A stretch of 64,000 nucleotides of DNA from a virus (IMGVR_UViG_3300025274_001348:1-64000), one strand, 5' to 3'. Counted from the first letter of the stretch, positions 1,546 through 13,030 are shown. Program-made: numbers and translations. The notes: generated by a model from the sequence alone, not told the origin.

Positions 1546-1555
1546 GCGGGGTTCG

Positions 1556-1636
1556 GGTAAAACGCGCCGCGTGGGTGTCTCCCGCCATCCACGCCGCTCC
1601 GCGTCAAGGGTAATCTGGGATTTAGCGTGATTTTTT
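1556..1636 (+). ncRNA. Hairpin RNA module, copy 2
   Basis: GGTAAAACGCG, then a 9-bp hairpin (GCGTGGGTG at 1569-1577 with CATCCACGC at 1586-1594), then GCGTCAAGGGTAATCTGGG and GTGATTTTTT. An outer pairing ACGCG/CGCGT closes the structure. Compared with other copies the hairpin arms change together, so the fold is conserved rather than the sequence. No clear -35 is seen upstream here, so it may be a 3' UTR element or its own RNA. Confidence 0.6.
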
Positions 1637-1640
1637 AGTA

Positions 1641-1659
1641 ATTGAGACTCGATCTCAAT
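1641..1659 (+). promoter_or_regulatory. Inverted repeat ATTGAGA-N5-TCTCAAT, candidate operator
   Basis: Perfect 7-bp inverted repeat with a 5-bp centre, 34 bp upstream of the -35 of the promoter at 1694. The same repeat recurs at 2720, 3691 and 5253 in the same place relative to the promoter. The centre varies while the arms are kept, as expected of a dimer-binding operator; an RNA hairpin is the alternative. Confidence 0.55.
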
Positions 1660-1693
1660 AGGCTAATCTGAGGAGATAGGGTGGACACTGGGC

Positions 1694-1722
1694 TTGATTT
1701 ATGCCGATAAGTATAGTATAAT
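1694..1722 (+). promoter_or_regulatory. GCCGATAA-box promoter 1
   Basis: TTGATT 1694-1699, 17-bp spacer containing GCCGATAA (1703-1710), TATAAT 1717-1722. One of nine promoters carrying this box between -35 and -10. Drives the gene at 1759. Confidence 0.75.
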
Positions 1723-1758
1723 GGGAACATACAACAGAGAACAAACGAAAGAGCAAAC

Positions 1759-1989
1759 ATGAGTTGGACAACTGCAACCAGAATTAGAAACGAAAAAATT
1801 CAACGGGCCGTCGAGTTGGCACAACGGGCCAATATCACCGACGTTGACAAGGCGAGAGCAATCAAGGACAAGTACGTTGCACTGCTCAACGAAGACCCCA
1901 CCAGCGAAAAGAATCAACGACTTTACAACTGGTCACAACAGGTTCTTATCGGGGCGAGAACGTTGGCCGGTGAGAGAATCTGGATTTGA
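1759..1989 (+). CDS. Hypothetical early protein, 76 aa
   Basis: Basic, mostly helical-looking protein beginning MSWTTATRIRNEKIQRAVEL with many Arg, Gln and Ala and a central DVDKARAIKDKY segment. No known motif. A small nucleic-acid-binding or helical adaptor protein would fit, but that is inference from composition. It is a single-gene cassette between a GCCGATAA-box promoter and the promoter of the large RNA at 2028. Confidence 0.7.
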   Translation: MSWTTATRIRNEKIQRAVELAQRANITDVDKARAIKDKYVALLNEDPTSEKNQRLYNWSQQVLIGARTLAGERIWI

Positions 1990-1992
1990 AGC

Positions 1993-2021
1993 TTGACAAG
2001 CCGGGTTCATTCTGGTACAAT
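1993..2021 (+). promoter_or_regulatory. Sigma70-type promoter of large RNA A
   Basis: TTGACA 1993-1998, 17-bp spacer ending CTGG, TACAAT 2016-2021. The next coding sequence is about 780 nt downstream, beyond a terminator at 2541, so the promoter appears to serve a non-coding RNA. Confidence 0.75.
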
Positions 2022-2170
2022 GGACACAACGAACAACGGGGCTACTGGAACTCACAGGCAACGCTGATAAGACGCCGTGAGATAGGGTTAAGAGCCACTG
2101 CAAGCCTAACACACAAAACATACTCTGGAGAAGTTTCGACAACTGATAACCCCTTGCGAGGGTAAGCCCA

Positions 2171-2206
2171 CTAAGAACCGGGGCGCCACTAAAGTTCTCG
2201 GTGACG
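2171..2206 (+). repeat. 36-nt RNA motif shared by RNAs A and B, copy A
   Basis: Starts CTAAGAACCGGGGCGCC and ends CTCGGTGACG. Differs from the copy at 9026-9061 at three positions, all in the loop. ACCG/CGGT can pair, leaving an apical loop with the self-complementary hexamer GGCGCC. Flanks differ in sequence but can still pair (CCC-AC with GT-A-GGG). Confidence 0.7.
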
Positions 2207-2392
2207 TAGGGGAAGCTGGTTAGCTTCTAATCGCAAGTGCAGTTGTTACAGGGCGCAACTCCCTGTCAGAGTGCCACACAATCCTGAGTAGTACCCCACG
2301 CTCGGTTGGCCGTTACAGCGGCAAGGGACTAGTAAGCCTAGTAGAAGCCTGTAAGCTTTGAACGGATGCTAGTACCATGGGGATCTTACAAC

Positions 2393-2458
2393 GGACAGGA
2401 ATGGATTACGGGGTTGACCGACAAACTGGTCGCAGGGTTCAATTACCTGCCCTGTCCT
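2393..2458 (+). ncRNA. tRNA-like domain inside RNA A
   Basis: A perfect 7-bp acceptor-like helix (GGACAGG 2393-2399 with CCTGTCC 2451-2457) followed by a single T. Next to it is a T-arm-like hairpin GCAGG/CCTGC with loop GTTCAATTA, plus one more hairpin (GACC/GGTC). A D-arm is absent and the T-loop is enlarged, so it is not a normal tRNA gene; it may be a structural mimic or chance resemblance. Confidence 0.4.
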
Positions 2459-2540
2459 TTGACACCACCCTAACAGAAGGGGACCGCGAATGAAGCTATA
2501 TTGAAACAGCACTAGCAAGATGGGCGTCTATCGTCCACAA

Positions 2541-2577
2541 GCCCCTGTCGGAAAACCAGCGACGGGGGCTTTTTTTA
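2541..2577 (+). terminator. Intrinsic terminator of RNA A
   Basis: GCCCCTGTCG pairs with CGACGGGGGC (one T-G pair) followed by seven Ts. The 16 nt before it (2518-2533, AGATGGGCGTCTATCG) recur before the terminator at 5081. Confidence 0.85.
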
Positions 2578-2612
2578 TTCCGAGGAAATTCTGGAATTAT
2601 TCAAGATTGGGG

Positions 2613-2641
2613 TTGACAGAGGGGCCGAGATTAGGTAAAAC
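2613..2641 (+). promoter_or_regulatory. TTGACA-17-TAAAAC promoter of hairpin module copy 3
   Basis: TTGACA 2613-2618, 17-bp spacer, TAAAAC 2636-2641. The predicted transcript start (about 2648) lies at the foot of the module hairpin, suggesting that the module can be a separate small RNA. Confidence 0.6.
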
Positions 2642-2717
2642 TCAGCGGCGAGGTGGTCTTCGCCCATCCGAGCCGCTTGGCGTCAAGGGTAATATGGCAG
2701 TTTGTGTGATTTTTTTC
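2634..2717 (+). ncRNA. Hairpin RNA module, copy 3
   Basis: GGTAAAAC, a GC-rich hairpin (GCGGC...GCCGC with an inner AGGTGG/CCATCC helix), GGCGTCAAGGGTAAT, then TGTGATTTTTTT. The arms differ from copies 2, 4 and 5 but remain complementary. It lies between the terminator of RNA A and the promoter at 2774. Confidence 0.6.
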
Positions 2718-2719
2718 TA

Positions 2720-2738
2720 ATTGAGACTGAGTGTCAAT
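2720..2738 (+). promoter_or_regulatory. Inverted repeat, candidate operator (one mismatch)
   Basis: ATTGAGA-CTGAG-TGTCAAT: the same repeat as at 1641 with one mismatched pair, directly after the U-run of the module and 35 bp before the -35 at 2774. Confidence 0.5.
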
Positions 2739-2773
2739 AAGGAAAAGTGAGGAGATAGGGTGGCGATTGGGCT

Positions 2774-2801
2774 TGTATTTTGTCGATAATAGTAGTATAA
2801 T
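2774..2801 (+). promoter_or_regulatory. GCCGATAA-box promoter 2
   Basis: TTGTAT 2774-2779, 16-bp spacer with the variant box GTCGATAA (2782-2789), TATAAT 2796-2801. The predicted start (2808) is one base before the ATG of the next gene, so the mRNA is nearly leaderless. Confidence 0.7.
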
Positions 2802-2808
2802 GGGAGAC

Positions 2809-3009
2809 ATGAAAACGCAACACACATACAAGCCGATGGAATTCGCTCAGTACTTCGATACGCATGGCGTGCATCACGCCGTGACTGTCCTGTCCGTCTT
2901 GCATGACGGGAAGGCTGTGAAGATCCACTACTACACGGACATCGAGTTGACCGACGTGGTGGTCAAGTGGGTTTTGGCGAAATCCCTGATTCCCATGATT
3001 GGGGCTTGA
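2809..3009 (+). CDS. Hypothetical early protein from a leaderless mRNA, 66 aa
   Basis: Start ATG is 8 nt from the -10 box, leaving no room for a ribosome-binding site in the mRNA. The protein is soluble, His/Val-rich (HGVHHAVTVLSVLHDGKAVKI) and unrecognised. Its beta-rich pattern ending in KWVLAKSLIPMIGA could form a small sandwich. The stop codon TGA (3007-3009) lies within the -35 of the following promoter. Confidence 0.7.
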   Translation: MKTQHTYKPMEFAQYFDTHGVHHAVTVLSVLHDGKAVKIHYYTDIELTDVVVKWVLAKSLIPMIGA

Positions 3010-3034
3010 CAACCAACGCCACGCTTGGTACAAT
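3006..3034 (+). promoter_or_regulatory. Sigma70-type promoter overlapping a stop codon
   Basis: TTGACA 3006-3011, 17-bp spacer, TACAAT 3029-3034. The TGA of the gene at 2809 is part of the -35. It drives the acidic gene at 3113 through a leader similar to that at 985-1048. Confidence 0.8.
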
Positions 3035-3112
3035 ACGAGCATACAAACACACGGGTGCAAAGCTCCTCAAGATCCGAGGCCGACCCAACCACTAGCCTTG
3101 AAAGGGCAAAAC

Positions 3113-3430
3113 ATGACGTTTGACGAATCGCGCGACAACCTGCTGGACATCGAAGCGGCTTCCATCGAGGCCGACGCCCACGCGGAAACCCGCGAAGCCG
3201 ACGACAATCGGCCCATGGAACGCCGGGTAGCCGACGCTTGGTGGGCAACCCGCAACGCGGAAGCCGACGCTCCCGATGACGTGGACCATGACGCGGATGA
3301 GAACCACCCGATGGGCGGGGACGACGACGAACCCGAGGAGGATGACGGCCAGCCCAGCGAGTACGAGGAGTGGCAGGATTACATGGGCGGGGATGAGTAC
3401 TACGACCACGGCGAAAACGGGGAGTGGTAG
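3113..3430 (+). CDS. Acidic early protein family member B, 105 aa
   Basis: Paralogue of the 1049 protein: N-terminus MTFDESRDNLLDIEAASIEA, then ADAHAETREADD and RRVADAWWA (the latter shared with ERRVADAWWA in member A). The C-terminus has DGQPSEYEEWQDYM-GGDEYYDHGENG. The central acidic linker is shorter than in A. ATG chosen behind AAGGGCAAA. The leader was duplicated with the gene. Acidity and lack of hydrophobic core suggest an extended binding protein (inference). Confidence 0.8.
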   Translation: MTFDESRDNLLDIEAASIEADAHAETREADDNRPMERRVADAWWATRNAEADAPDDVDHDADENHPMGGDDDEPEEDDGQPSEYEEWQDYMGGDEYYDHGENGEW

Positions 3431-3432
3431 GC

Positions 3433-3504
3433 ATGGGATGGGCTTTCACGATCTTCTGGTTCCTGATGTTCGGCTTGATCTTTCTGGACATCCACGACGG
3501 ATAA
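3433..3504 (+). CDS. One-helix membrane peptide, 23 aa
   Basis: MGWAFTIFWFLMFGLIFLDI followed by a short polar tail. Starts 2 nt after the acidic gene's stop, repeating the arrangement at 1049/1465, and ends before a strong terminator. Function unknown. Confidence 0.5.
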   Translation: MGWAFTIFWFLMFGLIFLDIHDG

Positions 3505-3517
3505 CACGAACCCTTTC

Positions 3518-3564
3518 CACTCCGTCGCGGTGAGTGATGACACCGTGGCGGGGTGTTTTTTTTT
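3518..3564 (+). terminator. Strong intrinsic terminator
   Basis: A 15-bp stem (CACTCCGTCGCGGTG with CACCGTGGCGGGGTG, including G-T pairs) followed by nine Ts. Ends the acidic gene plus membrane peptide cassette. Confidence 0.9.
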
Positions 3565-3584
3565 GAGAAAATTCCAGATTGGGC

Positions 3585-3613
3585 TTGACATGGGGGCCGG
3601 GATCAGGTAAAAC
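3585..3613 (+). promoter_or_regulatory. TTGACA-17-TAAAAC promoter of hairpin module copy 4
   Basis: TTGACA 3585-3590, 17-bp spacer, TAAAAC 3608-3613, followed at once by the module hairpin. Its location directly after a strong terminator argues for independent transcription of the module. Confidence 0.6.
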
Positions 3614-3686
3614 GCGCCGCGCGGATGTCCTGCCCCATCCGCGCTGCTCGGAGTCAAGGGTAATTTGGGATTCAGCGTGATTTTTT
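3606..3686 (+). ncRNA. Hairpin RNA module, copy 4
   Basis: GGTAAAACGCG, perfect hairpin CGCGGATG/CATCCGCG, GAGTCAAGGGTAAT, then GTGATTTTTT. Being preceded by a terminator and its own promoter, this copy is the best evidence that the module is a discrete small RNA of roughly 70-80 nt. Confidence 0.65.
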
Positions 3687-3690
3687 AGGA

Positions 3691-3709
3691 ATTGAGATCC
3701 AGTCTCAAT
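3691..3709 (+). promoter_or_regulatory. Inverted repeat, candidate operator
   Basis: ATTGAGA-TCCAG-TCTCAAT, perfect arms, same position relative to module and promoter as at 1641. Confidence 0.55.
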
Positions 3710-3743
3710 AGTGGAATCTGAGTAGATAAGGTGGCGGTTGGGG

Positions 3744-3772
3744 TTGATTTATGCCGATAAATATAGTATAAT
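3744..3772 (+). promoter_or_regulatory. GCCGATAA-box promoter 3
   Basis: TTGATT 3744-3749, 17-bp spacer with GCCGATAA (3753-3760), TATAAT 3767-3772. The predicted start (3779) is one base before the ATG at 3780. Confidence 0.75.
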
Positions 3773-3779
3773 GGGAGAC

Positions 3780-4022
3780 ATGAAAGACACAACAGCGAAA
3801 CAAGTTTGGACAGGCCGCGACAAAGACGGCAACGCTTTCCGGCTCAACGCCCCGGTGAACGCTGGGAGTGAATGGGTGTTCAGCGAATCGGCTAGGCTGC
3901 TGGCCTTGCTGGGTTGGGCGAAGGTTTCCGTCGTAATGAAGGGCGACCACATTGTCCTGCTCAACTCGGCGGTCAAGGCAGATCCCGTTTCGCCACCGTT
4001 CCTGAATCCCAACAAGGCTTGA
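3780..4022 (+). CDS. Hypothetical early protein from a leaderless mRNA, 80 aa
   Basis: ATG lies 8 nt from the -10, so translation is probably leaderless. Begins MKDTTAKQVWTGRDKDGNAF; the middle has an amphipathic segment (ESARLLALLGWAKVSVVMKG) and the end is Pro-rich (PVSPPFLNPNKA). No known domain. Its TGA (4020-4022) is inside the -35 of the next promoter. Confidence 0.7.
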   Translation: MKDTTAKQVWTGRDKDGNAFRLNAPVNAGSEWVFSESARLLALLGWAKVSVVMKGDHIVLLNSAVKADPVSPPFLNPNKA

Positions 4023-4047
4023 CAACCCTACCACGATCTGGTACAAT
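4019..4047 (+). promoter_or_regulatory. Sigma70-type promoter overlapping a stop codon; leaderless output
   Basis: TTGACA 4019-4024, 17-bp spacer ending CTGG, TACAAT 4042-4047. The predicted +1 is exactly the A of the ATG at 4054. Confidence 0.8.
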
Positions 4048-4053
4048 ACACAC

Positions 4054-4290
4054 ATGCAACACAAACCCAAGACCGGCGATCTGTTTGACAGGGGCAATCA
4101 ACACGACTTCGAGTTGGTCCCGTTGAAAGCTCACAGGAAATGGCAGTACATCACGATTCTGCACGGGATTGACGGCAGACCGGCGGATTGTGGTGTGAGA
4201 GTGGACTACCCGCGTTTGACGGGTGGCGGCTTTGGTTTCAATGGTGAGATCAAGCAACGACGGAAGATCTGGAAAGTGAAAGGGACGTAG
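4054..4290 (+). CDS. Hypothetical early protein from a leaderless mRNA, 78 aa
   Basis: The ATG coincides with the predicted transcription start. Basic protein (MQHKPKTGDLFDRGNQHDFE; C-terminus EIKQRRKIWKVKGT) with Gly-rich turns (TGGGFGFNG), suggesting a small beta fold able to bind nucleic acid (inference). The next gene follows 2 nt after the stop behind GGGACGTAGAG. Confidence 0.7.
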   Translation: MQHKPKTGDLFDRGNQHDFELVPLKAHRKWQYITILHGIDGRPADCGVRVDYPRLTGGGFGFNGEIKQRRKIWKVKGT

Positions 4291-4292
4291 AG

Positions 4293-4490
4293 ATGGAAGA
4301 ACTGTGGAACGCACAAACGGCAGCGGGGGTCAAGTTTCAATTCTGGATGCCGGAAGGCTCCGACCATGATGCTGCGCTGGACGTAGCGTTGGGACTCAAG
4401 GACAAGATCGATCCCGACTTCAATGACTGGTTGGTCATGGTGACGATGGCGGCGTTGACCGGACACAACGGCTCCCCGATTCTGTCTTGA
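4293..4490 (+). CDS. Hypothetical early protein, 65 aa
   Basis: Second gene of the cassette. Acidic, with Trp/Phe-rich N-terminal part (MEELWNAQTAAGVKFQFWM) and a hydrophobic C-terminal stretch (DWLVMVTMAAL) probably buried rather than membrane spanning. The TGA (4488-4490) is in the -35 of the next promoter. No homologue recognised. Confidence 0.7.
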   Translation: MEELWNAQTAAGVKFQFWMPEGSDHDAALDVALGLKDKIDPDFNDWLVMVTMAALTGHNGSPILS

Positions 4491-4515
4491 CAATCGGCGG
4501 CTGGTCTGGTACAAT
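4487..4515 (+). promoter_or_regulatory. Sigma70-type promoter overlapping a stop codon
   Basis: TTGACA 4487-4492, 17-bp spacer ending CTGG, TACAAT 4510-4515. It drives the cassette 4546-5056, which has a normal leader with GAGAGGGCAAGGA. Confidence 0.8.
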
Positions 4516-4545
4516 ATACGAAACGGTAGCGCGAGAGGGCAAGGA

Positions 4546-4737
4546 ATGGAATTGGTTTACAAGCTGGATGGGGTCGAAGTCTGGTACTGTCACGAGTCTG
4601 ACGACTTCGAGGTGTGGGCGATGGTGTCGAATGGCCCTGACGACTTCCAGTGGGACGTGGTGTTGACAACCGACGACAGCGAATGGGCTGTGATCGTCGC
4701 GGATGAAGTTTGGCTCAAGATGGAGACGATGGTATGA
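4546..4737 (+). CDS. Hypothetical early protein, 63 aa
   Basis: Start supported by AGAGGGCAAGGA just upstream. Small acidic protein rich in Trp and Asp (YCHESDDFEVWAMV, WAVIVADEVWLKM), likely a compact beta fold. First gene of a three-gene cassette; its TGA overlaps the ATG of the next gene (ATGA). Function unknown. Confidence 0.7.
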   Translation: MELVYKLDGVEVWYCHESDDFEVWAMVSNGPDDFQWDVVLTTDDSEWAVIVADEVWLKMETMV

Positions 4738-5000
4738 TGACGCGAAAACACTTCAAGATGCTGGCCGCTTCTATTGCGAAGCTGACCCTGTTCGACAAGG
4801 ACGCGGGCTACGACATGGCTTGCGAGGTGGCCGACGCTTGTGCGAAGGACAACCCGCGCTTTGACCGGGTCAAGTTCTTCGAGGCTTGCGGGTTTCCCGG
4901 CGGGATGCACTTGCGTCCATTGCCGGTGCAATACGTGAACTGCGTGGTCGATGCTCAGGGTTTCGTTCCCGCGCGGACTAACAAGAAAGGGGAAACATGA
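4734..5000 (+). CDS. Hypothetical early protein, 88 aa
   Basis: Starts within the preceding stop (ATGATG gives two adjacent candidate starts, 4734 or 4737). Helical N-terminal half (KHFKMLAASIAKLTLFDKD) and a Cys-containing middle (ACEVADACAK, FEACGFPGG). No domain recognised. Its own stop overlaps the membrane peptide at 4997, so the three genes look translationally chained. Confidence 0.7.
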   Translation: MMTRKHFKMLAASIAKLTLFDKDAGYDMACEVADACAKDNPRFDRVKFFEACGFPGGMHLRPLPVQYVNCVVDAQGFVPARTNKKGET

Positions 5001-5056
5001 TCTGGGAAACCGTGATCCAAGTGGCCGTGATCATCCTAGCGATCATCGCTCACTAA
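4997..5056 (+). CDS. One-helix membrane peptide, 19 aa
   Basis: MIWETVIQVAVIILAIIAH: essentially one hydrophobic helix. ATGA overlap with the upstream gene; a terminator follows at 5081. Very short, so the call depends on the repeated pattern of cassette-closing peptides. Confidence 0.45.
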   Translation: MIWETVIQVAVIILAIIAH

Positions 5057-5080
5057 AAAGATGGGCGTCTATCGCCTATA

Positions 5081-5112
5081 AACCTCGCCCCTATATGCGG
5101 CGGGGTTTTTTT
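5081..5112 (+). terminator. Intrinsic terminator
   Basis: AACCTCGCC pairs with GGCGGGGTT (one T-G) followed by a T-run to 5112. Preceded by the repeated 16-mer AGATGGGCGTCTATCG (5059-5074). Confidence 0.85.
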
Positions 5113-5167
5113 ATAACTATATATAACGGCGGCGGCGGGATGTATAAGGGTATATAGTGACGGTTTA

Positions 5168-5248
5168 GGTAAAACGCGCCGGGCAGTGGTCTTGCGCCAA
5201 CTGCCCTGCTTCGCGTCAAGGGTAATCTGGGATTTGGTGTGGTTTTTT
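5168..5248 (+). ncRNA. Hairpin RNA module, copy 5
   Basis: GGTAAAACGCGCC, hairpin GGGCAGTGG/CCAACTGCCC with one bulge, GCGTCAAGGGTAATCTGGG, then GTGGTTTTTT. Outer pairing ACGCG/CGCGT kept. No obvious -35 upstream. Confidence 0.6.
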
Positions 5249-5252
5249 AGAA

Positions 5253-5271
5253 ATTGAGATCATGTCTCAAT
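5253..5271 (+). promoter_or_regulatory. Inverted repeat, candidate operator
   Basis: ATTGAGA-TCATG-TCTCAAT, perfect arms. Fourth and last copy seen in the window. Confidence 0.55.
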
Positions 5272-5305
5272 AGGGGGAATTGCTGAGATATGGTGGAGAC
5301 TGGGC

Positions 5306-5333
5306 TTGCATAATGCCGATAATATGTTATAAT
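5306..5333 (+). promoter_or_regulatory. GCCGATAA-box promoter 4
   Basis: TTGCAT 5306-5311, 16-bp spacer with GCCGATAA (5315-5322), TATAAT 5328-5333. Drives the gene at 5370. Confidence 0.75.
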
Positions 5334-5369
5334 GGGGGACAGACAACAACAAGTGAAAGGGTTTGAAAG

Positions 5370-5666
5370 ATGACGAAGACAGTTCCAATGGTTTCCAGTG
5401 ATTGCGTGATCGCCGTGATGGACAAGGCGATGAGCGTGGACATGATGCAGTTCGGTGCGGAGACGCTTGAGGAGATGATGAAGGATCAGCCTCAACTGCT
5501 CAAGGTGATTTCCTTCCTGCTCACCGAACTCATCGCCAAGGGCAAGGACGAGGAAACCGCCGCGATTGATGCCGTCCAGACGATGGCCGTGATCGGCGTG
5601 GTGTTCAAGGCAATCAAGACCCAGATCGAAGCCGACGAAATGGAAATGTCGGAAGACTGGTCTTGA
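5370..5666 (+). CDS. Helical early protein family, member 1, 98 aa
   Basis: Paralogue of the protein at 8163. Shared features are VIAVMxKA near the N-terminus, DMxxFGxxxLxEM, QPxL, a variable middle and KxIKxQIEAxEM near the C-terminus. Mostly amphipathic helices; no known domain. Both copies follow a similar leader ending GGGTTTGAAA. The TGA (5664-5666) is inside the next -35. A dimeric helical adaptor is plausible (inference). Confidence 0.75.
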   Translation: MTKTVPMVSSDCVIAVMDKAMSVDMMQFGAETLEEMMKDQPQLLKVISFLLTELIAKGKDEETAAIDAVQTMAVIGVVFKAIKTQIEADEMEMSEDWS

Positions 5667-5691
5667 CAATCAACCCCCCGTCTGGTACAAT
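5663..5691 (+). promoter_or_regulatory. Sigma70-type promoter overlapping a stop codon; leaderless output
   Basis: TTGACA 5663-5668, 17-bp spacer ending CTGG, TACAAT 5686-5691. Predicted +1 is the A of the ATG at 5698. Confidence 0.8.
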
Positions 5692-5697
5692 TGACAC

Positions 5698-5874
5698 ATG
5701 AAACACATCGAACTCAGCATCCCCTGTCGGACAACGGCCAGCTTTCGCCAGCCGCAACAGCAGCCCGTCAAGGACACCCCGGAGAAACGGGAAGCCCGGA
5801 TTCGCCTGTACGCTTGGCGAGCCGAAAACAACCTCGACATTTTCACTGGATTTCCGAAAAGGACAACCCCATGA
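5698..5874 (+). CDS. Hypothetical basic early peptide from a leaderless mRNA, 58 aa
   Basis: The ATG coincides with the predicted transcript start and the TGA overlaps the ATG of the acidic gene at 5871 (ATGA), which together support a real gene despite its size. Basic and Gln/Arg-rich (SFRQPQQQPVKDTPEKREAR) with an aromatic C-terminus. It may be a partner of, or translational lead-in to, the acidic protein downstream. Confidence 0.55.
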   Translation: MKHIELSIPCRTTASFRQPQQQPVKDTPEKREARIRLYAWRAENNLDIFTGFPKRTTP

Positions 5875-6098
5875 CGTTTGAAGAAGCCTTCGAGAACGAC
5901 CCCCAAGCCCGCGCCGAATTCGAGGAGTACCTCGACGAGATGGCCGAGGACCACGTCCACGTTGCGGTGAGTCTCCACGACAGGGACGAGGAGTGGGATG
6001 CGGAGAACGACGGCCAGCCCACGGAGTACGAGGAGTGGCAAGACTTCATGGGTGGCGACGACTGGGATCAAGGCCAGTACGACGATCTTGGTTACTAG
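5871..6098 (+). CDS. Acidic early protein family member C, 75 aa
   Basis: Shortest family member. Starts MTFEEAFENDPQARAEFEEY and carries the conserved C-terminal motif (NDGQPTEYEEWQDFM-GGDDWDQGQYDD). The N-terminal half has diverged from members A and B and lacks the RRVADAWWA block. ATG chosen for the ATGA overlap with the upstream peptide and the match of MTFxE to members A and B. tRNA-Asp follows. Confidence 0.75.
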   Translation: MTFEEAFENDPQARAEFEEYLDEMAEDHVHVAVSLHDRDEEWDAENDGQPTEYEEWQDFMGGDDWDQGQYDDLGY

Positions 6099-6184
6099 AA
6101 TACGGGTCGAGGTGGTGTTGGTTGTCTCCGTTCTAGAGCGGACAGTACGCCAACGTAATGCAAACCACACACCCCCGTAGATCC

Positions 6185-6257
6185 GGGGACGTAACTCAAC
6201 AGGCAGAGTGCCGGATTGTCTATCCGGTGGTTGCGGGTTCAAATCCCGCCGTCCTCG
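6185..6257 (+). tRNA. tRNA-Asp (anticodon GUC)
   Basis: Full cloverleaf: acceptor GGGGACG/CGTCCTC, D-arm with ACTC/GAGT, anticodon stem CCGGA/TCCGG with loop TTGTCTA (GTC), T-arm GCGGG-TTCAAAT-CCCGC, discriminator G. No encoded CCA. It may serve the very Asp-rich early proteins. Confidence 0.93.
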
Positions 6258-6347
6258 CTTTATATAGCCGCTGCTTCTCGCCCTGTTTTATATACTTATA
6301 TAACTCATCGGGGCCGGGGGTGGCGGTTGTTTTATAGACCCGGATCA

Positions 6348-6412
6348 GGTGAAACGCGACGGCGCTGTGTCGCTCGACAACCGCGCCGCTGGGCGGCTTG
6401 GGGACTAGCAAG
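6348..6412 (+). ncRNA. Hairpin RNA module, copy 6 (divergent 3' part)
   Basis: GGTGAAACGCG, GGCGC...GCGCC helix with inner TGTC/GACA, then GGGCGG. The GTCAAGGGTAA tail and the U-run are not conserved here. It precedes the promoter at 6467 as the other copies precede theirs. Confidence 0.45.
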
Positions 6413-6466
6413 TGAAAATGAGTCAGGAAAACTTTGGGATTCTCGGAAATAGGATCAAGATTGGGG

Positions 6467-6494
6467 TTGACTTTGGTCGATAATATACTATACT
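6467..6494 (+). promoter_or_regulatory. GCCGATAA-box promoter 5
   Basis: TTGACT 6467-6472, 16-bp spacer with GTCGATAA (6476-6483), TATACT 6489-6494. Drives 6524 onward. Confidence 0.7.
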
Positions 6495-6523
6495 GGAGGA
6501 GTAAGTCAGTGAGAGGGCAAGAC

Positions 6524-6730
6524 ATGAAACGCAAGACGAAGAAGATGAATCGCGGCACAATCGAGTTCGGTGCTAACTGCGTCACGATCACGATTGAGAG
6601 CGAGCCATGGAAGGTTGGCAGGATTCATTCCGTCAACAAGGCTGGCGCTGGCAAGCACAAGGACAGGCGAACCAAGCGGAACCGCACACGAGCAAACCAG
6701 AACCACAACGCAATCAGGGAATCCATGTAA
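6524..6730 (+). CDS. Basic early protein, 68 aa
   Basis: Strongly basic: MKRKTKKMNRGTIEFGANCV at the N-terminus and a C-terminal run of Lys/Arg/His/Asn (KHKDRRTKRNRTRANQNH). No known domain; a nucleic-acid-binding role is inferred from charge. ATG preceded by GAGAGGGCAAG. The membrane peptide at 6732 begins one base after the stop. Confidence 0.7.
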   Translation: MKRKTKKMNRGTIEFGANCVTITIESEPWKVGRIHSVNKAGAGKHKDRRTKRNRTRANQNHNAIRESM

Positions 6731-6731
6731 A

Positions 6732-6830
6732 ATGGTAACTGACCTCTTGACTTGGACGAACATCTGTGGTATAATTGTGGCTGTGGGATTCATTTCGGTT
6801 TTGGCAGACAAACTTGGTTGGTGGGAATAG
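6732..6830 (+). CDS. One-helix membrane peptide, 32 aa
   Basis: Residues 10-25 (NICGIIVAVGFISVLA) form the helix, followed by DKLGWWE. The promoter at 6747 lies inside this coding sequence, so it is transcribed from upstream while the internal promoter serves the next gene. Confidence 0.5.
   Translation: MVTDLLTWTNICGIIVAVGFISVLADKLGWWE
6747..6775 (+). promoter_or_regulatory. Sigma70-type promoter inside a coding sequence
   Basis: TTGACT 6747-6752, 17-bp spacer ending GTGG, TATAAT 6770-6775. Output: the operon 6841-7722. Confidence 0.7.
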
Positions 6831-6840
6831 GGAGATGACG

Positions 6841-7317
6841 ATGAGCGACAAGGCTATGCGGATTACTGACAACAAGGGATTCCAACTGGATCTGCCTAAC
6901 GGCGTGACGGTTTCCGTCCAGTGGGGTCCGGGCAACTACTGCGACAGCGACGTGTCGAATGCCAAGTGGGATGCCCCGAAAAAGGCGATTGACGGTGACG
7001 AGCATTGGGGTTCCAACACCGCCGAGTGTGCCGCCTACGTTACTGGTAGCAATCTGTCGTGGGTTGCCGTGCCGGGATACACTGGGCCTCACGGTTGCGA
7101 CGACGAGGACGTGTTCTACGATGACGTGGTTGGACACCTTGACGTTCAGGGCGTTCTGGACTTCATCAATCTGGCATCGCAGGTTGCTGCGGAACCGAAC
7201 CCGAACAGCATCGGAAACAAGATGCTGGGCTGGCTCGAAAAGGAAGATCCTGTGCCTAGCGATCAGCATCCGTTCCCACTCCCCGGACAGAAGGAGCTTG
7301 ATTTCGATGACGCTTGA
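6841..7317 (+). CDS. Hypothetical early protein, 158 aa
   Basis: Start at 6841 rather than 6835 because GGGAG then sits 6 nt upstream. Acidic soluble protein with a beta-rich N-terminal part (GFQLDLPNGVTVSVQWGPG), a Trp/Gly-rich middle and an acidic segment HGCDDEDVFYDDVV. A helical stretch follows (VQGVLDFINLASQVAAEPN). No family recognised. It leads a four-gene overlapping cassette. Confidence 0.75.
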   Translation: MSDKAMRITDNKGFQLDLPNGVTVSVQWGPGNYCDSDVSNAKWDAPKKAIDGDEHWGSNTAECAAYVTGSNLSWVAVPGYTGPHGCDDEDVFYDDVVGHLDVQGVLDFINLASQVAAEPNPNSIGNKMLGWLEKEDPVPSDQHPFPLPGQKELDFDDA

Positions 7318-7516: not shown

Positions 7517-7655
7517 AGGCGAGAAGTTCAAGCGGCTGAAGAATTCCACCAAGACCGACTTGGGCGTTATCAAGAAACTGGTCAAGGACGGGTGGACGTT
7601 CTGCGACAAGACAACGTGGAGGGCGCTCAGAGATGGCGATGCTGCGAAAGATTAA
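7500..7655 (+). CDS. Small basic protein, 51 aa (GTG start)
   Basis: GTG start behind AGGGAG with 7-nt spacing; overlaps the upstream gene by 17 nt. Lys-rich N-terminus (KTLRKGEKFKRLKNS), then LGVIKKLVKDGWTFCDKTTW. Overlaps the membrane peptide at 7633. Probably real given the coupling and ribosome-binding site; function unknown. Confidence 0.55.
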   Translation: MKTLRKGEKFKRLKNSTKTDLGVIKKLVKDGWTFCDKTTWRALRDGDAAKD

Positions 7656-7722
7656 TCGGGACACTTTGGTGACGTTTGCGTTCATCGGCTTCTGGACCTT
7701 TATCATCGTGGCAACACGGTGA
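7633..7722 (+). CDS. One-helix membrane peptide, 29 aa
   Basis: MAMLRKINRDTLVTFAFIGF leads into WTFIIVATR: a positively charged N-terminus and a single hydrophobic helix, so the N-terminus should stay in the cytoplasm. It closes the cassette just before the hairpin module at 7730. Confidence 0.5.
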   Translation: MAMLRKINRDTLVTFAFIGFWTFIIVATR

Positions 7723-7729
7723 GGGTTCA

Positions 7730-7811
7730 GGTGAAACGCTGCGGCGGGTGTGTCGCTGCACATCCCGCCAGCTTCGGCGCAAGGGTAATCTGGGATTTTG
7801 AGCGATTTTTT
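7730..7811 (+). ncRNA. Hairpin RNA module, copy 7
   Basis: GGTGAAACGC, hairpin GGCGGGTGTG/CACATCCCGCC with one bulge and loop TCGCTG, GGCGCAAGGGTAATCTGGG, then GCGATTTTTT. Arms again covary with those of other copies. Confidence 0.6.
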
Positions 7812-7857
7812 CGAAAGTTTTTTCTGGCAATCTGACGGGATTTACTGGAGTGCGACC

Positions 7858-7885
7858 TTGACTAATGCCGATAATATACTATAAT
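7858..7885 (+). promoter_or_regulatory. GCCGATAA-box promoter 6
   Basis: TTGACT 7858-7863, 16-bp spacer with GCCGATAA (7867-7874), TATAAT 7880-7885. Drives 7914. Confidence 0.75.
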
Positions 7886-7913
7886 GGGGGGAACAATACA
7901 CGAGGGTGAGAGC

Positions 7914-8099
7914 ATGACAGAGAAAGAGTTGGACAGGCTGCTGGCAGAAGACGGATACGGGGTGCGTGAGGTTTGCGGTGAACGGGCAGGCGAAACCGTT
8001 TGGGAGTTGTGGGAGTTGATGGATTCTAGCACTGGCTGGATCGTCGGCTACTTCGACACCGCCGAAGACGTTTGCGATTTTGTCGGGATTTATGCTTGA
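7914..8099 (+). CDS. Hypothetical acidic early protein, 61 aa
   Basis: Begins MTEKELDRLLAEDGYGVREV with a helical N-terminus, then two short strands around WELWELMDSSTGWIVGYFDT. Acidic and soluble. The stop TGA (8097-8099) is inside the next -35. No family recognised. Confidence 0.7.
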   Translation: MTEKELDRLLAEDGYGVREVCGERAGETVWELWELMDSSTGWIVGYFDTAEDVCDFVGIYA

Positions 8100-8123
8100 C
8101 AATGGTTGATAGTCTGCTACAAT
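8096..8123 (+). promoter_or_regulatory. Sigma70-type promoter overlapping a stop codon
   Basis: TTGACA 8096-8101, 16-bp spacer, TACAAT 8118-8123. Drives 8163-8832 and probably RNA B. Confidence 0.75.
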
Positions 8124-8162
8124 GGATAGCAGACAAGGACACAAGAACGAGAGGGTTTGAAA

Positions 8163-8480
8163 ATGGCGACGATGAACGGGATGCCGCGAGTGACGAAGGA
8201 CGCAACGATTGCCGTGATGCACAAGGCAACGACAATCGACATGGCTGAATTCGGGGTTCAAGTCCTCGATGAACTGGACGAGGAGCAACCGGCCTTGTGT
8301 CAGATGCTCACTCACATGATCATGGACCTCGCCTGTCCCGACGAGATGCCCGAGGAATTGAAGCAGTCGAATGCTCTGATCATGACCGTCATCGCCGGAT
8401 GTCTGTTCAAGTCGATCAAGGCACAGATTGAAGCGGAAGAAATGGCAAGTTTGTTTAGTGAAGAGGAGACTGTTGAATGA
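8163..8480 (+). CDS. Helical early protein family, member 2, 105 aa
   Basis: Paralogue of the 5370 protein (TIAVMHKATTIDMAEFG, DEEQPAL, FKSIKAQIEAEEM). Slightly longer, with a Cys in the central helix and an acidic tail (FSEEETVE). ATG chosen over an in-frame TTG two codons earlier. Its stop overlaps the ATG at 8477. Confidence 0.75.
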   Translation: MATMNGMPRVTKDATIAVMHKATTIDMAEFGVQVLDELDEEQPALCQMLTHMIMDLACPDEMPEELKQSNALIMTVIAGCLFKSIKAQIEAEEMASLFSEEETVE

Positions 8481-8653
8481 CACACGTTGGAATTGGTGAT
8501 CGAGTGCTGTTTGACTACCACGGCAAGGCTCGGAGTGGTAGCATCGAGAAGATCGGGAATGGTCCCGCTGGCGTCTACGTCATCATCGCACACGGCGATG
8601 GCTCGCACAAGACGTTCTCACAACCCAAAATCAGTAACCTGCGAAAGGTGTAA
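8477..8653 (+). CDS. Small SH3-like barrel candidate, 58 aa
   Basis: ATGA overlap with the upstream gene. Pattern GIGDRVLFDYHGKARSGSIE then GVYVIIAHGDGSHKTF resembles small KOW/SH3-type barrels that bind nucleic acid or RNA polymerase. This is a fold guess from strand pattern only. Confidence 0.55.
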   Translation: MTHVGIGDRVLFDYHGKARSGSIEKIGNGPAGVYVIIAHGDGSHKTFSQPKISNLRKV

Positions 8654-8655
8654 AC

Positions 8656-8832
8656 ATGAAGACGACGGTTGCGACATTCGAGTTGGAAAAGGAAACCAAG
8701 AACACGATTCGCTACAGCGAAACGCCGGATGAAGGCGTGGCCCCAGTGGTCAACACGATCTACATCCAGAAGCACGTTCTCGGCAAGACCGCTCCACAGA
8801 ACATCAAGGTGACAATGGAGGAATCTAAATAA
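8656..8832 (+). CDS. Small beta-type protein, 58 aa
   Basis: Begins MKTTVATFELEKETKNTIRY and has IYIQKHVLGKTAPQNIKVTM, a pattern common in short phage proteins with a single-sheet fold and in DUF-type single-strand-binding-like proteins. No firm family. Last protein gene before RNA B, with no promoter or terminator between, so both are probably co-transcribed. Confidence 0.6.
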   Translation: MKTTVATFELEKETKNTIRYSETPDEGVAPVVNTIYIQKHVLGKTAPQNIKVTMEESK

Positions 8833-9025
8833 GGCGGGGATTGCAACCCCGTCTAGGGTGGTGACTGAACAATCCCCGGTTATGGGGGGATAAGGTGCGC
8901 GCTGCTGAGTTCCGATAGCCGAATGGTCGAGGAGTTCAGGTAGACGGCAGTCATACAGAACTACCATATCTGTGAGCTTGCGGGCAAAAGTGAATCCCGC
9001 CCACCCGTTATACATACAGCGCTGG

Positions 9026-9061
9026 CTAAGAACCGGGGCGCCACTATAATACTCGGTGACG
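9026..9061 (+). repeat. 36-nt RNA motif shared by RNAs A and B, copy B
   Basis: Same CTAAGAACCGGGGCGCC start and CTCGGTGACG end as 2171-2206. Differences are confined to the A/T-rich loop. Here it is closed by a perfect 9-bp stem of different sequence, so the motif sits as an interchangeable domain in two RNAs. Confidence 0.7.
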
Positions 9062-9112
9062 CCAGCGCTATCAAACAGTGACTTGGAGTTTCGCCCTTTC
9101 CTCAGTCGCTGG

Positions 9113-9147
9113 CCCCCGTTCCGGTTCGCCGGTGCGGGGGTTTTTTT
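9113..9147 (+). terminator. Intrinsic terminator of RNA B
   Basis: CCCCC...CCGG-TTCG-CCGG...GGGGG with a small internal loop, then seven Ts. Confidence 0.85.
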
Positions 9148-9161
9148 ATTGGCGGGGATCG

Positions 9162-9240
9162 GGTGAAACGCGGCGGCGGGTTGTCGCTGGGCAACAACGC
9201 CGCTCGGCGTCAAGAGGAAAGTGGAGGTTTAGGCGATTTT
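9162..9240 (+). ncRNA. Hairpin RNA module, copy 8
   Basis: GGTGAAACGCG, GCGGCG/CGCCGC helix with inner GTTGT/GCAAC, then CGGCGTCAAGAGG. The tail after the hairpin is diverged and the U-run is reduced to TTTT. Confidence 0.5.
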
Positions 9241-9278
9241 GTGGAAAGTTTTTCTAGGGAATATATTCAAGTTGGGGG

Positions 9279-9306
9279 TTGACAATAGCCGATAATACTC
9301 TATAAT
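9279..9306 (+). promoter_or_regulatory. GCCGATAA-box promoter 7
   Basis: TTGACA 9279-9284, 16-bp spacer with GCCGATAA (9288-9295), TATAAT 9301-9306. Drives the 9337 operon. Confidence 0.8.
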
Positions 9307-9336
9307 GGGGGAGTAACACACACACGAGGGCAAGCA

Positions 9337-10119
9337 ATGTTGAAGTGGTCGAAAGCAAACGCGAAAACGGAACGGTTGAACGAGAGTTGTTGGGCAATTG
9401 CCAAGCACCTTGACGATGGGCGGAAGGTCTACAGTCTCGATCTGTTGTCGGGCTACTCGTGTCCGTTTGCAAAGGCGTGTCTCTCGAAAGCGGTTGTCGG
9501 TGAAAATGGCAAGCGGACAATCAAGGACGGTCCCCACAATGAGTTTCGTTGTTTCTCGGCATCGCAAGAGGTGCAGTACACCAACGTGTACAATCTCCGC
9601 AAACACAATTACGACACCTTGAAGGAAAACCAAGACGACTGGCCGTTGATGTATCAGGAACTGTGGAAGTCGATTCCCCCGGATGCCGGGATTGTTCGGA
9701 TTCATGTTGCAGGGGATTTCTTCAACGAGAATTATCTCCGGGCTTGGATTGAACTGGCTCAAACAACTCCCGACGTGTTGTTCTACGCCTACACCAAAAG
9801 CCTGAAGTATTGGGATGCTCTCAAGAGTGAAGTCCCCGAGAATCTGGTGCTGACGGCGTCGTATGGTGGGCGTGACGACTGGATGATTGATCATGGTGGA
9901 TTCCGATTCGCCAAGGTGGTATTCTCAGAAGCGGAAGCGGAAGAACTCGACTTGATTATCGACCACGATGATTCCCACGCTGCTAATCCAACGTGGCGGG
10001 ATGAGAGTTTCGCACTGTTGATTCACGGGACACAACCGGCGGGATCGGAAGCGGCGACGGCTCTGCGAGAATTGAAGGGTAAAGGTTCTTACTCTAGAAA
10101 ACAAAAGGTGACGGGATGA
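9337..10119 (+). CDS. GP88-like phage protein, 260 aa
   Basis: Resembles the phage 'gene product 88' family. The N-terminal segment has Cys-rich SGYSCPFAKACLSKA, followed by FRCFSASQE. Then comes IVRIHVAGDFFNENYLRAWI, typical of the family's RxHxxGDF core, and FYAYTKSLKYW. The Cys cluster suggests metal or Fe-S binding. Biochemical role is not established as far as I know. It is first gene in a four-gene overlapping operon behind a GCCGATAA-box promoter; start supported by CGAGGGCAAGC. Confidence 0.7.
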   Translation: MLKWSKANAKTERLNESCWAIAKHLDDGRKVYSLDLLSGYSCPFAKACLSKAVVGENGKRTIKDGPHNEFRCFSASQEVQYTNVYNLRKHNYDTLKENQDDWPLMYQELWKSIPPDAGIVRIHVAGDFFNENYLRAWIELAQTTPDVLFYAYTKSLKYWDALKSEVPENLVLTASYGGRDDWMIDHGGFRFAKVVFSEAEAEELDLIIDHDDSHAANPTWRDESFALLIHGTQPAGSEAATALRELKGKGSYSRKQKVTG

Positions 10120-10985: not shown

Positions 10986-11013
10986 TTGACATATTGTGTC
11001 GATAAACTATAAT
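10986..11013 (+). promoter_or_regulatory. GCCGATAA-box promoter 8
   Basis: TTGACA 10986-10991, 16-bp spacer with GTCGATAA (10998-11005), TATAAT 11008-11013. The box is closer to the -10 here. Drives 11084. Confidence 0.75.
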
Positions 11014-11083
11014 GGAGACATACAGTTGAGTTGGTGAGTGTTTCACCGACAATGAGTTTTGACCGCAGACGGAGACAAGAGAC

Positions 11084-11410
11084 ATGAGTGAGAAGAAGCA
11101 AAGAGCAGAGGCGATTTCGGCCACGGCATTCGTGGAAGCATACGTTAAGGTTCACCAGAACGGCGGCACGATTGCCGACGTTGCCGACGAGTTGGGCCGG
11201 TCTGTTGAGCAGACCCGGAGCAAGAAGAATGCTCTGACTCCCGCATTCGCTGAACGCGGGATCAAGCTGCCGAAGTTGGTTCGGCAAGGTCGCAACGGCA
11301 CGTCCTACGACGAGGCGGCTCAGGTCGCTGGTGACTACCTCGCAAGTCTGATGGCGGGGAGTGACGAGGCCGAGTCCGACGAGTCGGAGTCGGAATTCGC
11401 TTCGGAGTAA
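11084..11410 (+). CDS. Small helix-turn-helix-like protein, 108 aa
   Basis: Residues about 10-60 show a helix-turn-helix pattern: helix (ATAFVEAYVKVHQNG), then GTIADVADELGRSVEQTRSK, where the second part could be the recognition helix. The C-terminus is a Ser/Glu/Asp-rich tail (DEAESDESESEFASE). A DNA-binding regulator of the early promoters is possible; this is inference. A terminator follows. Confidence 0.7.
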   Translation: MSEKKQRAEAISATAFVEAYVKVHQNGGTIADVADELGRSVEQTRSKKNALTPAFAERGIKLPKLVRQGRNGTSYDEAAQVAGDYLASLMAGSDEAESDESESEFASE

Positions 11411-11428
11411 TCATCCGTCGCGGAGGTG

Positions 11429-11462
11429 GGGTCGCCCTTTATTAGGGCGGCCCTGCTTTTTT
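11429..11462 (+). terminator. Intrinsic terminator
   Basis: GGGTCGCCCT-TTATT-AGGGCGGCCC (10 bp, one T-G) followed by CTGCTTTTTT. Confidence 0.85.
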
Positions 11463-11463
11463 C

Positions 11464-11492
11464 TTGACTTGTCCTGCTACTTATGTTACTAT
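11464..11492 (+). promoter_or_regulatory. Sigma70-type promoter of the DUF932-like gene
   Basis: TTGACT 11464-11469, 17-bp spacer, TACTAT 11487-11492, directly abutting the terminator before it. Confidence 0.65.
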
Positions 11493-11528
11493 GTAGAAGG
11501 ACAGAAAACTAACTTTTGGAGTGATGAG

Positions 11529-12785
11529 ATGAATGAAAAAATCGAAGCGTATGACGGAGCGAATGAAGAAGGTCAGTGGGTGTTCGACTCACAGGGGGTT
11601 GCCTCTGACGAAGGGTTCGGTCACGTCTCGAAGGACTGGTATCCCAAGACCATCAGCTATGATGAAGGCATGGACCAACTGGAATCGGAGCGAGGTCACC
11701 GGCAGGACTTTCTTGTCCCGATTTCCGATCTGGATTTTGGCATCGAGGACGTGAAGGGGAAACCCCGATTCGTGGTCGTTGTCGAGGACCAGACCTTTGT
11801 TCCTAACAACCATGCTCTCCAACAGATGACAGCAAAGTTGTGCGAGGGCAAGGGAACGGGCTTCACTCGCTGGTTGACCGAGGATCAGGTCAACGCCAAA
11901 GAGGAGTCTCGCTACAAGCGTGACCGGCGGGATGCCGAAGTGATTGATGCCATTATCAGTAATGGCTTCCGTCGCATCCTCGAAGCTAAACCTGATACCA
12001 GTTACAAGATTCGTACCTACGATGATGGTACGATGCGAGCCTTCCTCAGTGAGAAATACGCCGAGGTGGACAATCGCTGGTACTTGGAGCAGATCGAGGA
12101 TATTATCCCGAATGGCCGATTGAGCCACTGGCGGGGTAACGCCGACACCATTTTCGGCAACGTCCTGATTCCCGATACCATCCGTGAGGAAGAAGATTCC
12201 GATTACGGCGGGATGATCTCGATTGGTAACTGCGAGATCGGCAAGAGGAATGTCCTGTCGATGCCAAGCCTGTTCCGTGCAATCTGCATGAACGGTTGCA
12301 TCTGGGGACAAACCAAGGGTACTGAGATTCGTGTTCGCCATATCGGTGATATCGACCTCGAAGATCTTTCCAAGCGGATTCGGAATAACATCGAGACGCA
12401 GATTCCTCTGCTTCCCGCTGGTATCGAGAGACTGCTGGGTGTTCGCCTGATGGAGAACGACGGCGTTCCCATGAAGTCGATCATCGCTGGTGTTGCCGAC
12501 ATGGAGAAGTTGCAGAAGCGTGAAGCGACTGCCGTTCTCGAAGCATGGGTGATGTTTGAATCCAAGACTCCCGGTGAGAACCGGAATCTGTTTGGGGTTG
12601 TGAACAGCGTGACCCGTGCCGGTCAATTCCTTGGGAATGAGAACTGGGTGAAGTTCGATCAGCTTGGTGGAAGGCTGGTCAACTACACGGACAATCAGTG
12701 GGATCGTCTTTGCAACCGCGCAGAGGATTACGACGACACTGATTACAACCGTATCTTCACCAACAAGGCGGTGTTGGCCGCATAA
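11529..12785 (+). CDS. DUF932-like phage/plasmid protein, 418 aa
   Basis: Resembles the DUF932 (YfjQ-type) family found on phages and plasmids. The signs are a conserved N-terminal strand-rich part, the segment YKIRTYDDGTMRAFLSEKYA and a middle with SMPSLFRAICMNGCIWG. The C-terminal WVMFESKTPGENRNLFGVVN and AGQFLGNENW parts include residues typical of the family. Role unknown, usually an early or replication-associated protein. ATG at 11529 follows GGAGTGATGAG. The upstream in-frame extension would read through the terminator and is rejected. A membrane peptide follows. Confidence 0.8.
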   Translation: MNEKIEAYDGANEEGQWVFDSQGVASDEGFGHVSKDWYPKTISYDEGMDQLESERGHRQDFLVPISDLDFGIEDVKGKPRFVVVVEDQTFVPNNHALQQMTAKLCEGKGTGFTRWLTEDQVNAKEESRYKRDRRDAEVIDAIISNGFRRILEAKPDTSYKIRTYDDGTMRAFLSEKYAEVDNRWYLEQIEDIIPNGRLSHWRGNADTIFGNVLIPDTIREEEDSDYGGMISIGNCEIGKRNVLSMPSLFRAICMNGCIWGQTKGTEIRVRHIGDIDLEDLSKRIRNNIETQIPLLPAGIERLLGVRLMENDGVPMKSIIAGVADMEKLQKREATAVLEAWVMFESKTPGENRNLFGVVNSVTRAGQFLGNENWVKFDQLGGRLVNYTDNQWDRLCNRAEDYDDTDYNRIFTNKAVLAA

Positions 12786-12795
12786 GGAGGTCAAC

Positions 12796-12885
12796 ATGGA
12801 ACGGTATGTCGGATACGGTATGTTCGCCTTTGGAGTGCTACTGTTTTGGATAGGTTTCAAGAATAGGTGGCGAGAAGAAGACTAG
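12796..12885 (+). CDS. One-helix membrane peptide, 29 aa
   Basis: MERYVGYGMFAFGVLLFWIG then FKNRWREED. Excellent ribosome-binding site (AAGGAGG) 7 nt before the ATG, the best of any of these peptides, which supports translation. Confidence 0.6.
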   Translation: MERYVGYGMFAFGVLLFWIGFKNRWREED

Positions 12886-12909
12886 AACCTACTAACTAGC
12901 AACGCGCGA

Positions 12910-12943
12910 CCCGCTCCGGTGCAAGCCGGGGCGGGTTTTTTTT
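12910..12943 (+). terminator. Intrinsic terminator at the end of the GC-rich section
   Basis: CCCGCTCCGG pairs with CCGGGGCGGG (10 bp) followed by eight Ts. Confidence 0.9.
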
Positions 12944-12977
12944 GTGAAAAAATCGGGGATTGGACTTGACAAGATCG

Positions 12978-13030
12978 GGTAAAACGGGAGGGCAACGGTG
13001 TAGCACGCTAACCGGGCCGCTGCGCCCAAG
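12978..13030 (+). ncRNA. Hairpin RNA module, degenerate copy 10
   Basis: GGTAAAACGGG, ACGGT/ACCG-type helix, GGGCCGCTGCGCCC. TTGACA at 12966 is only 8 bp from TAAAAC, so this copy looks damaged. It is the last recognisable copy and marks the end of the cassette region. Confidence 0.35.

What the first reader, a model, noticed from the sequence alone, without database searches (positions are those of the whole stretch)
1556..13030. Dispersed, covarying hairpin RNA module in about ten copies
A unit GGTRAAACGC, hairpin, GCGTCAAGGGTAATCTGGG, GTGATTTTTT occurs near 1556, 2634, 3606, 5168 and 7730 in nearly complete form. Weaker versions are near 794, 6348, 9162, 10841 and 12978. The hairpin arms differ in sequence but stay complementary (GCGTGGGTG/CATCCACGC, CGCGGATG/CATCCGCG, GGGCAGTGG/CCAACTGCCC), so the fold is under selection. 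Three copies sit just after a TTGACA-17-TAAAAC promoter, one of them directly behind a strong terminator, so at least those look like independent small RNAs placed between cassettes. I know of no named family like this.
Basis: seen in the sequence. Interest (0 to 1): 0.85.

Follow-up and report, generated by a model that had tools for sequence, protein, structure and literature searches.

The report
Promoter-linked hairpin modules in phage
A marine phage carries about nine copies of a short hairpin module, each at a near-fixed distance in front of a strong early-type promoter; comparison with related phages suggests it is an interchangeable promoter control element spread with gene cassettes, rather than a set of free small RNAs.

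Summary
The repeat is real. A model built from eight copies finds nine, all on the + strand between 1.55 and 13.1 kb and nowhere else in the 84.5-kb record; the copy proposed at 794 is not one. The hairpin arms covary (own versus swapped arms, p about 0.001). The small-RNA reading is not supported. All eight early-type promoters with CGATA in the spacer have a module 117-145 bp upstream; none of nine other promoters does. Only two accepted copies have TTGACA-17-TAAAAC, and that -10 lacks its final T. In 45 related marine viral loci the same slot is often filled by unrelated modules, commonly two imperfect palindromes 52-53 bp (five helical turns) apart. These lie in 10.5-bp steps from the -35 box (Rayleigh R = 0.78, n = 101), so position on the DNA helix matters. 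The window modules shift in similar steps, and four carry a palindrome shared with other phages at the matching phase. Orthologous small genes are shuffled among phages. Best reading: composite stem-loop, operator and promoter cassettes resembling the PeSLs of T4-type phages, with private, helically phased operators. The binding protein, direction of control and host are not established. A new variant of a known kind.

The parts
1553..1641 (+). module copy 1 (GGTAAAACGC - GC hairpin - GCGTCAAGGGTAATCTGGGATTT - GTGATTTTTT)
   Evidence: CM 102.9 bits
2631..2720 (+). module copy 2
   Evidence: CM 86.7 bits
3603..3691 (+). module copy 3
   Evidence: CM 95.6 bits
5165..5253 (+). module copy 4
   Evidence: CM 91.2 bits
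6345..6432 (+). module copy 5, right part degenerate
   Evidence: CM 66.6 bits
7727..7816 (+). module copy 6
   Evidence: CM 92.4 bits
9159..9247 (+). module copy 7
   Evidence: CM 88.6 bits
10838..10953 (+). module copy 8, with about 27 bp inserted after the hairpin
   Evidence: CM 61.4 bits; alignment
12975..13085 (+). module copy 9, degenerate, at the end of the array, no CGATA promoter close behind
   Evidence: CM 26.4 bits, E 3.5e-4, not in the seed
1641..1659 (.). F palindrome ATTGAGACTCGATCTCAAT, centre 43.5 bp upstream of the -35
2720..2738 (.). F palindrome, one mismatch
3691..3709 (.). F palindrome
5253..5271 (.). F palindrome
1694..1722 (+). early-type promoter TTGATT-17-TATAAT with CGATA in the spacer
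2773..2801 (+). early-type promoter TTGTAT-17-TATAAT with CGATA
3744..3772 (+). early-type promoter with CGATA
5306..5333 (+). early-type promoter TTGCAT-16-TATAAT with CGATA
6467..6494 (+). early-type promoter with CGATA
7858..7885 (+). early-type promoter with CGATA
9279..9306 (+). early-type promoter with CGATA, perfect hexamers
10986..11013 (+). early-type promoter with CGATA, perfect hexamers
11084..11410 (+). small protein with a probable helix-turn-helix; candidate binding protein of the modules (speculative)
   Evidence: family found in related phages; three-helix region in a low-confidence model; fold matches to LysR DNA-binding domains not significant

Best explanation
Each module is the upstream control part of a composite early-gene cassette: stem-loop, operator-like DNA and sigma-70-type promoter, followed by one or a few small genes. 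Cassettes multiply and shuffle by recombination between their repeated regulatory parts, so each phage lineage carries its own near-uniform module in front of its early-type promoters. A DNA-binding protein, not identified, is proposed to bind these sites on a constant face of the helix relative to RNA polymerase and so switch the promoters together. The hairpin would act as an insulator or partial terminator of upstream transcription, or as a recombination-prone structure. Shown: repetition, hairpin, association with promoters, slot-sharing by unrelated modules, helical phasing in relatives, gene shuffling. Inferred: protein binding, joint switching, role of the hairpin, early timing.
For: All 8 CGATA promoters have a module 117-145 bp upstream, 0 of 9 other promoters do. 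The module is part of a 182-nt repeat that includes the promoter. Module-to--35 distances in the window step by about one turn: 138-139 (four copies), 128, 117-119. Among 45 related loci, arrays of CGATA promoters are common. R palindromes in many of them lie 52-53 bp apart (46 of 52 neighbouring pairs) and 20, 31, 41-42, 51-52 or 94 bp from the -35; Rayleigh R 0.78 at 10.5 bp (n 101), and distances outside the commonest turn keep its phase (mean offset 1.19 against 2.62 expected). F palindromes, including those of the window, sit with centres 43.5 or 53.5 bp from the -35, the phase of the R centres. Shuffled gene order. In L024 the slot often holds short A-GC-T palindromes that look like intrinsic terminators.
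Against: No binding protein is identified. Window phasing rests on few independent copies; one copy (10841, 145 bp) fits only if measured from its right half. Arm covariation is not what a sequence-specific operator predicts and asks for a structural role. The GC-rich spacers of R modules do not fold better than shuffles, so the hairpin is not general. No sequence relative of the window module was found: model search of the related loci negative, and pattern scans of viral contigs gave none, or two single matches in 4.2-kb contigs that were not examined.
Confidence: 0.6

Rival explanations
1. Stem-loop terminators alone: the hairpin ends upstream transcripts before each new promoter and has no further role (plain PeSL).
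For: Position between the upstream unit and the next promoter; covarying arms; L024 and L035 carry A-GC-T terminator-like palindromes in that slot.
Against: No T-run follows the hairpin directly, and the scan scores none of the modules as a + strand terminator; several copies follow another terminator already (scored at 3518-3555 and 12908-12937; seen by eye before 2634, 5168 and 9162); phasing to the promoter is unexplained.
Confidence: 0.2
2. Operator or stoperator-like repressor sites of an immunity or timing system, the hairpin being incidental to two half-similar sites (GGTRAAAC and GGTAATCT) about 52 bp apart.
For: Single orientation, intergenic, lineage-specific, as in stoperators (PMC3029335); in several related phages R brackets the start site of a CGATA promoter, an operator-like layout; genes related to mycobacteriophage L5 gp82 and gp88 lie in the array.
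Against: No repressor, integrase or lysogeny gene was identified; the arms covary; the 52-bp half-similarity was read by eye and not tested statistically.
Confidence: 0.25
3. Independent small RNAs made from the modules.
For: Covarying hairpin; TTGACA-17-TAAAAC before two accepted copies; small noncoding cassettes seem to exist in related phages (seen).
Against: Seven of nine copies lack the promoter; the -10 lacks its last T; no terminator after the module; phasing to the downstream promoter; no Rfam match to a module.
Confidence: 0.1
4. Recombination or mobile-element sites (attC-like or integrase sites) whose structure matters for cassette exchange.
For: Within-genome uniformity and between-genome difference, shuffled cassettes; R-like palindromes lie next to tRNA genes in some bacterial contigs (read by eye).
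Against: Phasing to promoters is not needed for recombination; no recombinase was identified among the proteins scanned; integron core sites were not searched for systematically.
Confidence: 0.15

Closest known systems
PeSLs (promoter early stem-loops) of T4-type phages (Arbiol 2010, Comeau 2014; cited in PMC4503421)
   Same: Small repeated cassettes of strong sigma-70-like early promoter plus stem-loop between variable small genes, with gene shuffling
   Different: The stem-loop is not a recognisable intrinsic terminator and lies 117-145 bp upstream of the promoter; helically phased paired palindromes and lineage-specific modules are added; membership in the T4 group was not tested
Stoperators of cluster A mycobacteriophages (PMC3029335)
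   Same: Dispersed, oriented, intergenic sites that differ between heteroimmune phages
   Different: 13-bp asymmetric sites proposed to block elongation; here long composite elements phased to promoters, repressor not found
Class I activator sites upstream of sigma-70 promoters (own knowledge, e.g. CRP)
   Same: Positions allowed in steps of one helical turn upstream of the -35
   Different: Binding protein unknown; sites paired five turns apart around a GC-rich spacer

Membership tests
PeSL | early sigma-70-like promoter in the unit | tested here: met
   eight TATAAT-type promoters with CGATA spacer behind modules; early timing itself not tested
PeSL | stem-loop in the same repeated unit | tested here: met
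   182-nt repeat holding hairpin and promoter; hairpin support
PeSL | stem-loop is an effective transcription terminator | tested here: inconclusive
   not scored as a + strand intrinsic terminator; activity cannot be tested here
PeSL | cassette shuffling between related phages | tested here: met
   same genes in different order in L006, L007, L028
PeSL | host phage is T4-type | tested here: inconclusive
   an rIIA-like protein matches phrog_612, but rIIA-like proteins occur in many phages; no T4 core gene tested
stoperator | dispersed, one orientation, intergenic | tested here: met
   nine + strand copies, none significant on the - strand
stoperator | bound by a phage repressor that silences transcription | not testable with these tools
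   only a candidate HTH protein
independent small RNA | own promoter and terminator for each copy | tested here: not met
   two of nine copies with a TTGACA-17-TAAAAC; no terminator after modules
known Rfam RNA | match to a family | tested here: not met
   no match to a module at gathering cut-offs or at E up to 1 over 1500-9400

The most novel reading that the evidence does not exclude
A large group of marine phages labels its early promoters with a private, exchangeable address: paired palindromes about five helical turns apart, on one face of the helix relative to the promoter, read by a co-evolving small phage HTH protein. Related phages would share genes and promoters but not the address, as in immunity systems; the window phage would use a hairpin-containing version.
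Probability: 0.3. Interest if true: 0.7.

Novelty: new variant of a known kind. Interest (0 to 1): 0.5.

Why it matters
It links a repeated hairpin to promoter control and cassette shuffling in a widespread group of marine phages with no close record in the reference phage collection, and shows that unrelated sequences fill one regulatory slot under a common helical constraint. That makes the evolution of phage early regulation, possibly of immunity, directly testable by reporter assays.

Tried and rejected
Module at 794: not found by the model; a promoter-like sequence with an unrelated hairpin. Whole-unit RNA fold: not better than shuffles. Automatic consensus fold gave only 4 pairs, so the arm-swap test was used. 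Long-range pairing AAAACGC/GCGTGATTTT: p 0.16. Minus-strand terminator reading: the T-run is only 3-4 long. TTGACA near hairpins in relatives: in part this is a class-2 promoter whose -35 contains the stop codon of the upstream gene (open frames of 74-99 codons at six sites), and a gene end appears joined to a different continuation in L028. GC-rich spacers of R modules as hairpins: rejected. Finding the window module elsewhere: patterns negative or chance-level; model search of related loci negative. Query with the 98-aa protein at 5370: no match. Host from R palindromes: matches in Planctomycetota, Treponema and other bins, not decisive.

Full report
Where it lies. The window is the first 64 kb of an 84.5-kb IMG/VR virus record without end repeats. 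The first 13 kb has about 54% GC and a dense array of small genes; the rest has about 41% GC. No near match of 1-25 kb exists in the phage collection.

The observation. Repeat search shows a 182-nt family at 1545, 2624, 3595 and 5157 and shorter matches at 6348, 7730, 9162 and 10841. A covariance model from eight copies recovers all eight and adds 12978 at E 3.5e-4; in the whole record there are nine + strand copies and no other significant match. 794 is not among them. The model has only 4 pairs and is mainly a sequence model.

The hairpin. The full 85-nt unit does not fold better than shuffles, but the 42-nt hairpin does over the copies (Stouffer z -4.7), and own arms beat swapped arms (p 0.0012). 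Column-wise counts are weaker because copies differ by one-base register shifts. Covarying arms are therefore supported, not proven.

Link to promoters. Eight promoters in the array carry CGATA in the spacer (for example TTGACTAATGCCGATAATATACTATAATGG). Each has a module 117-145 bp upstream. Nine other promoters (mostly TTGACA-17-TACAAT) have none; six of the nine have a -35 containing a TGA that closes an open frame of 74-99 codons. Distances of module start to -35 are 138, 139, 138, 138, 119, 128, 117 and 145 in map order; the last copy has about 27 bp inserted, and its right half lies like that of the 117-119 class. The steps are close to one helical turn, but independent values are few.

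Relatives. A search with the GP88-like protein gave 45 marine viral loci, most with arrays of promoters with CGATA in the spacer. The window module is absent from them. Instead the slot upstream of many of these promoters holds other modules. In about half of the loci it is the R element, TAAnnCCTTRnnnnRTAACGACTTA, often in pairs around a GC-rich spacer (82% GC): clearly more hits than the reversed control, and mostly near promoters. Spacing between neighbouring R ends is 52-53 bp in 46 of 52 pairs; the last R end to the -35 peaks at 31, 41-42 and 51-52 bp. At 10.5 bp the Rayleigh R is 0.78 (n 101); collapsing repeats within a locus gives 0.72 (n 74). Distances to the first ATG or to an arbitrary triplet show much less or none (0.33, 0.08). 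Loci are related and were all drawn with one protein, so the nominal p values overstate independence, but several separate distance classes share one phase.

A second palindrome, F (CTTAwTGAGAnnnnnTCTCAwTAAG), occurs in four window copies and in other loci, mostly at 52 or 62 bp from the -35; 38 matches against none for the reversed control, overlapping matches to both halves of one palindrome counted. Its centres, 43.5 and 53.5 bp, coincide with R centres. Other loci have other palindromes in the slot, some like intrinsic terminators (L024).

Shuffling. Orthologues of window genes occur in L006, L007 and L028 in different orders, counting same-strand matches. This fits the modular shuffling attributed to PeSLs of T4-like phages (PMC4503421; the original PeSL papers were not held).

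A candidate reader. The gene at 11084 encodes a 108-aa protein with a probable helix-turn-helix; relatives occur in other loci, and their presumed recognition helices broadly follow the module type, L006 being an exception. The model is of low confidence (pLDDT 62.6) and fold matches to LysR DNA-binding domains are not significant. This is a lead only.

Conclusion. The evidence favours DNA-level promoter control elements inside shuffled cassettes. The hairpin of the window version is an unexplained addition: its covariation points to a structural role, perhaps as insulator. Free small RNAs are unlikely but not excluded. Host, binding protein and direction of control remain open.

Noticed in passing
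window 8832-9010 +: Sub-threshold match to manA RNA (RF01745, 47.0 bits, gathering 55.2, E 7.8e-10), just upstream of a shared element and a terminator-like sequence.
   Followed up: no
window 2173-2210 and 9028-9065: Two noncoding stretches share GCTAAGAACCGGGGCGCCACTAwArTwCTCGGTGACG; the first lies in a roughly 480-nt noncoding stretch with its own promoter (1993). Motifs such as GAGCCACTGAAAGCC and GTGAAAGCCTAAC recur in related phages.
   Followed up: partly
L053, L063, L064, L071, L074, L078: R-like palindromes TAAGTCSTTRnnnnRTAASGACTTAC lie directly beside tRNA genes (read by eye) in bacterial contigs.
   Followed up: partly
L008 3018, L019 13022, L023 14476, L026 12987, L028 16188, L037 14515: A promoter bracketed by R palindromes, one just behind the -10, precedes a leader of about 270 nt with repeats like ATAGTCTATAGCACGCGAGTTTTT in several of the loci, and in most of them a conserved protein of about 100 aa; a possible homologue is at window 23327.
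   Followed up: partly
window 18143-43414: Many metabolic genes for a phage: acyl-CoA dehydrogenase, 3-hydroxyacyl-CoA dehydrogenase, IMP dehydrogenase, SIS-domain aminotransferase-like protein, aldehyde dehydrogenase, class I aldolase, DUF1501, plus a tmRNA at 27704.
   Followed up: no
window 22459-23037: Protein with a sigma-70 region 4-like match just below the Pfam cut-off; possible phage sigma factor.
   Followed up: no
L030 1483, L043 5610, L045 3555, L046 2506, L014 1804: Conserved element AGGTAAGACA...GAACCACC near the start of promoter arrays in related phages.
   Followed up: no
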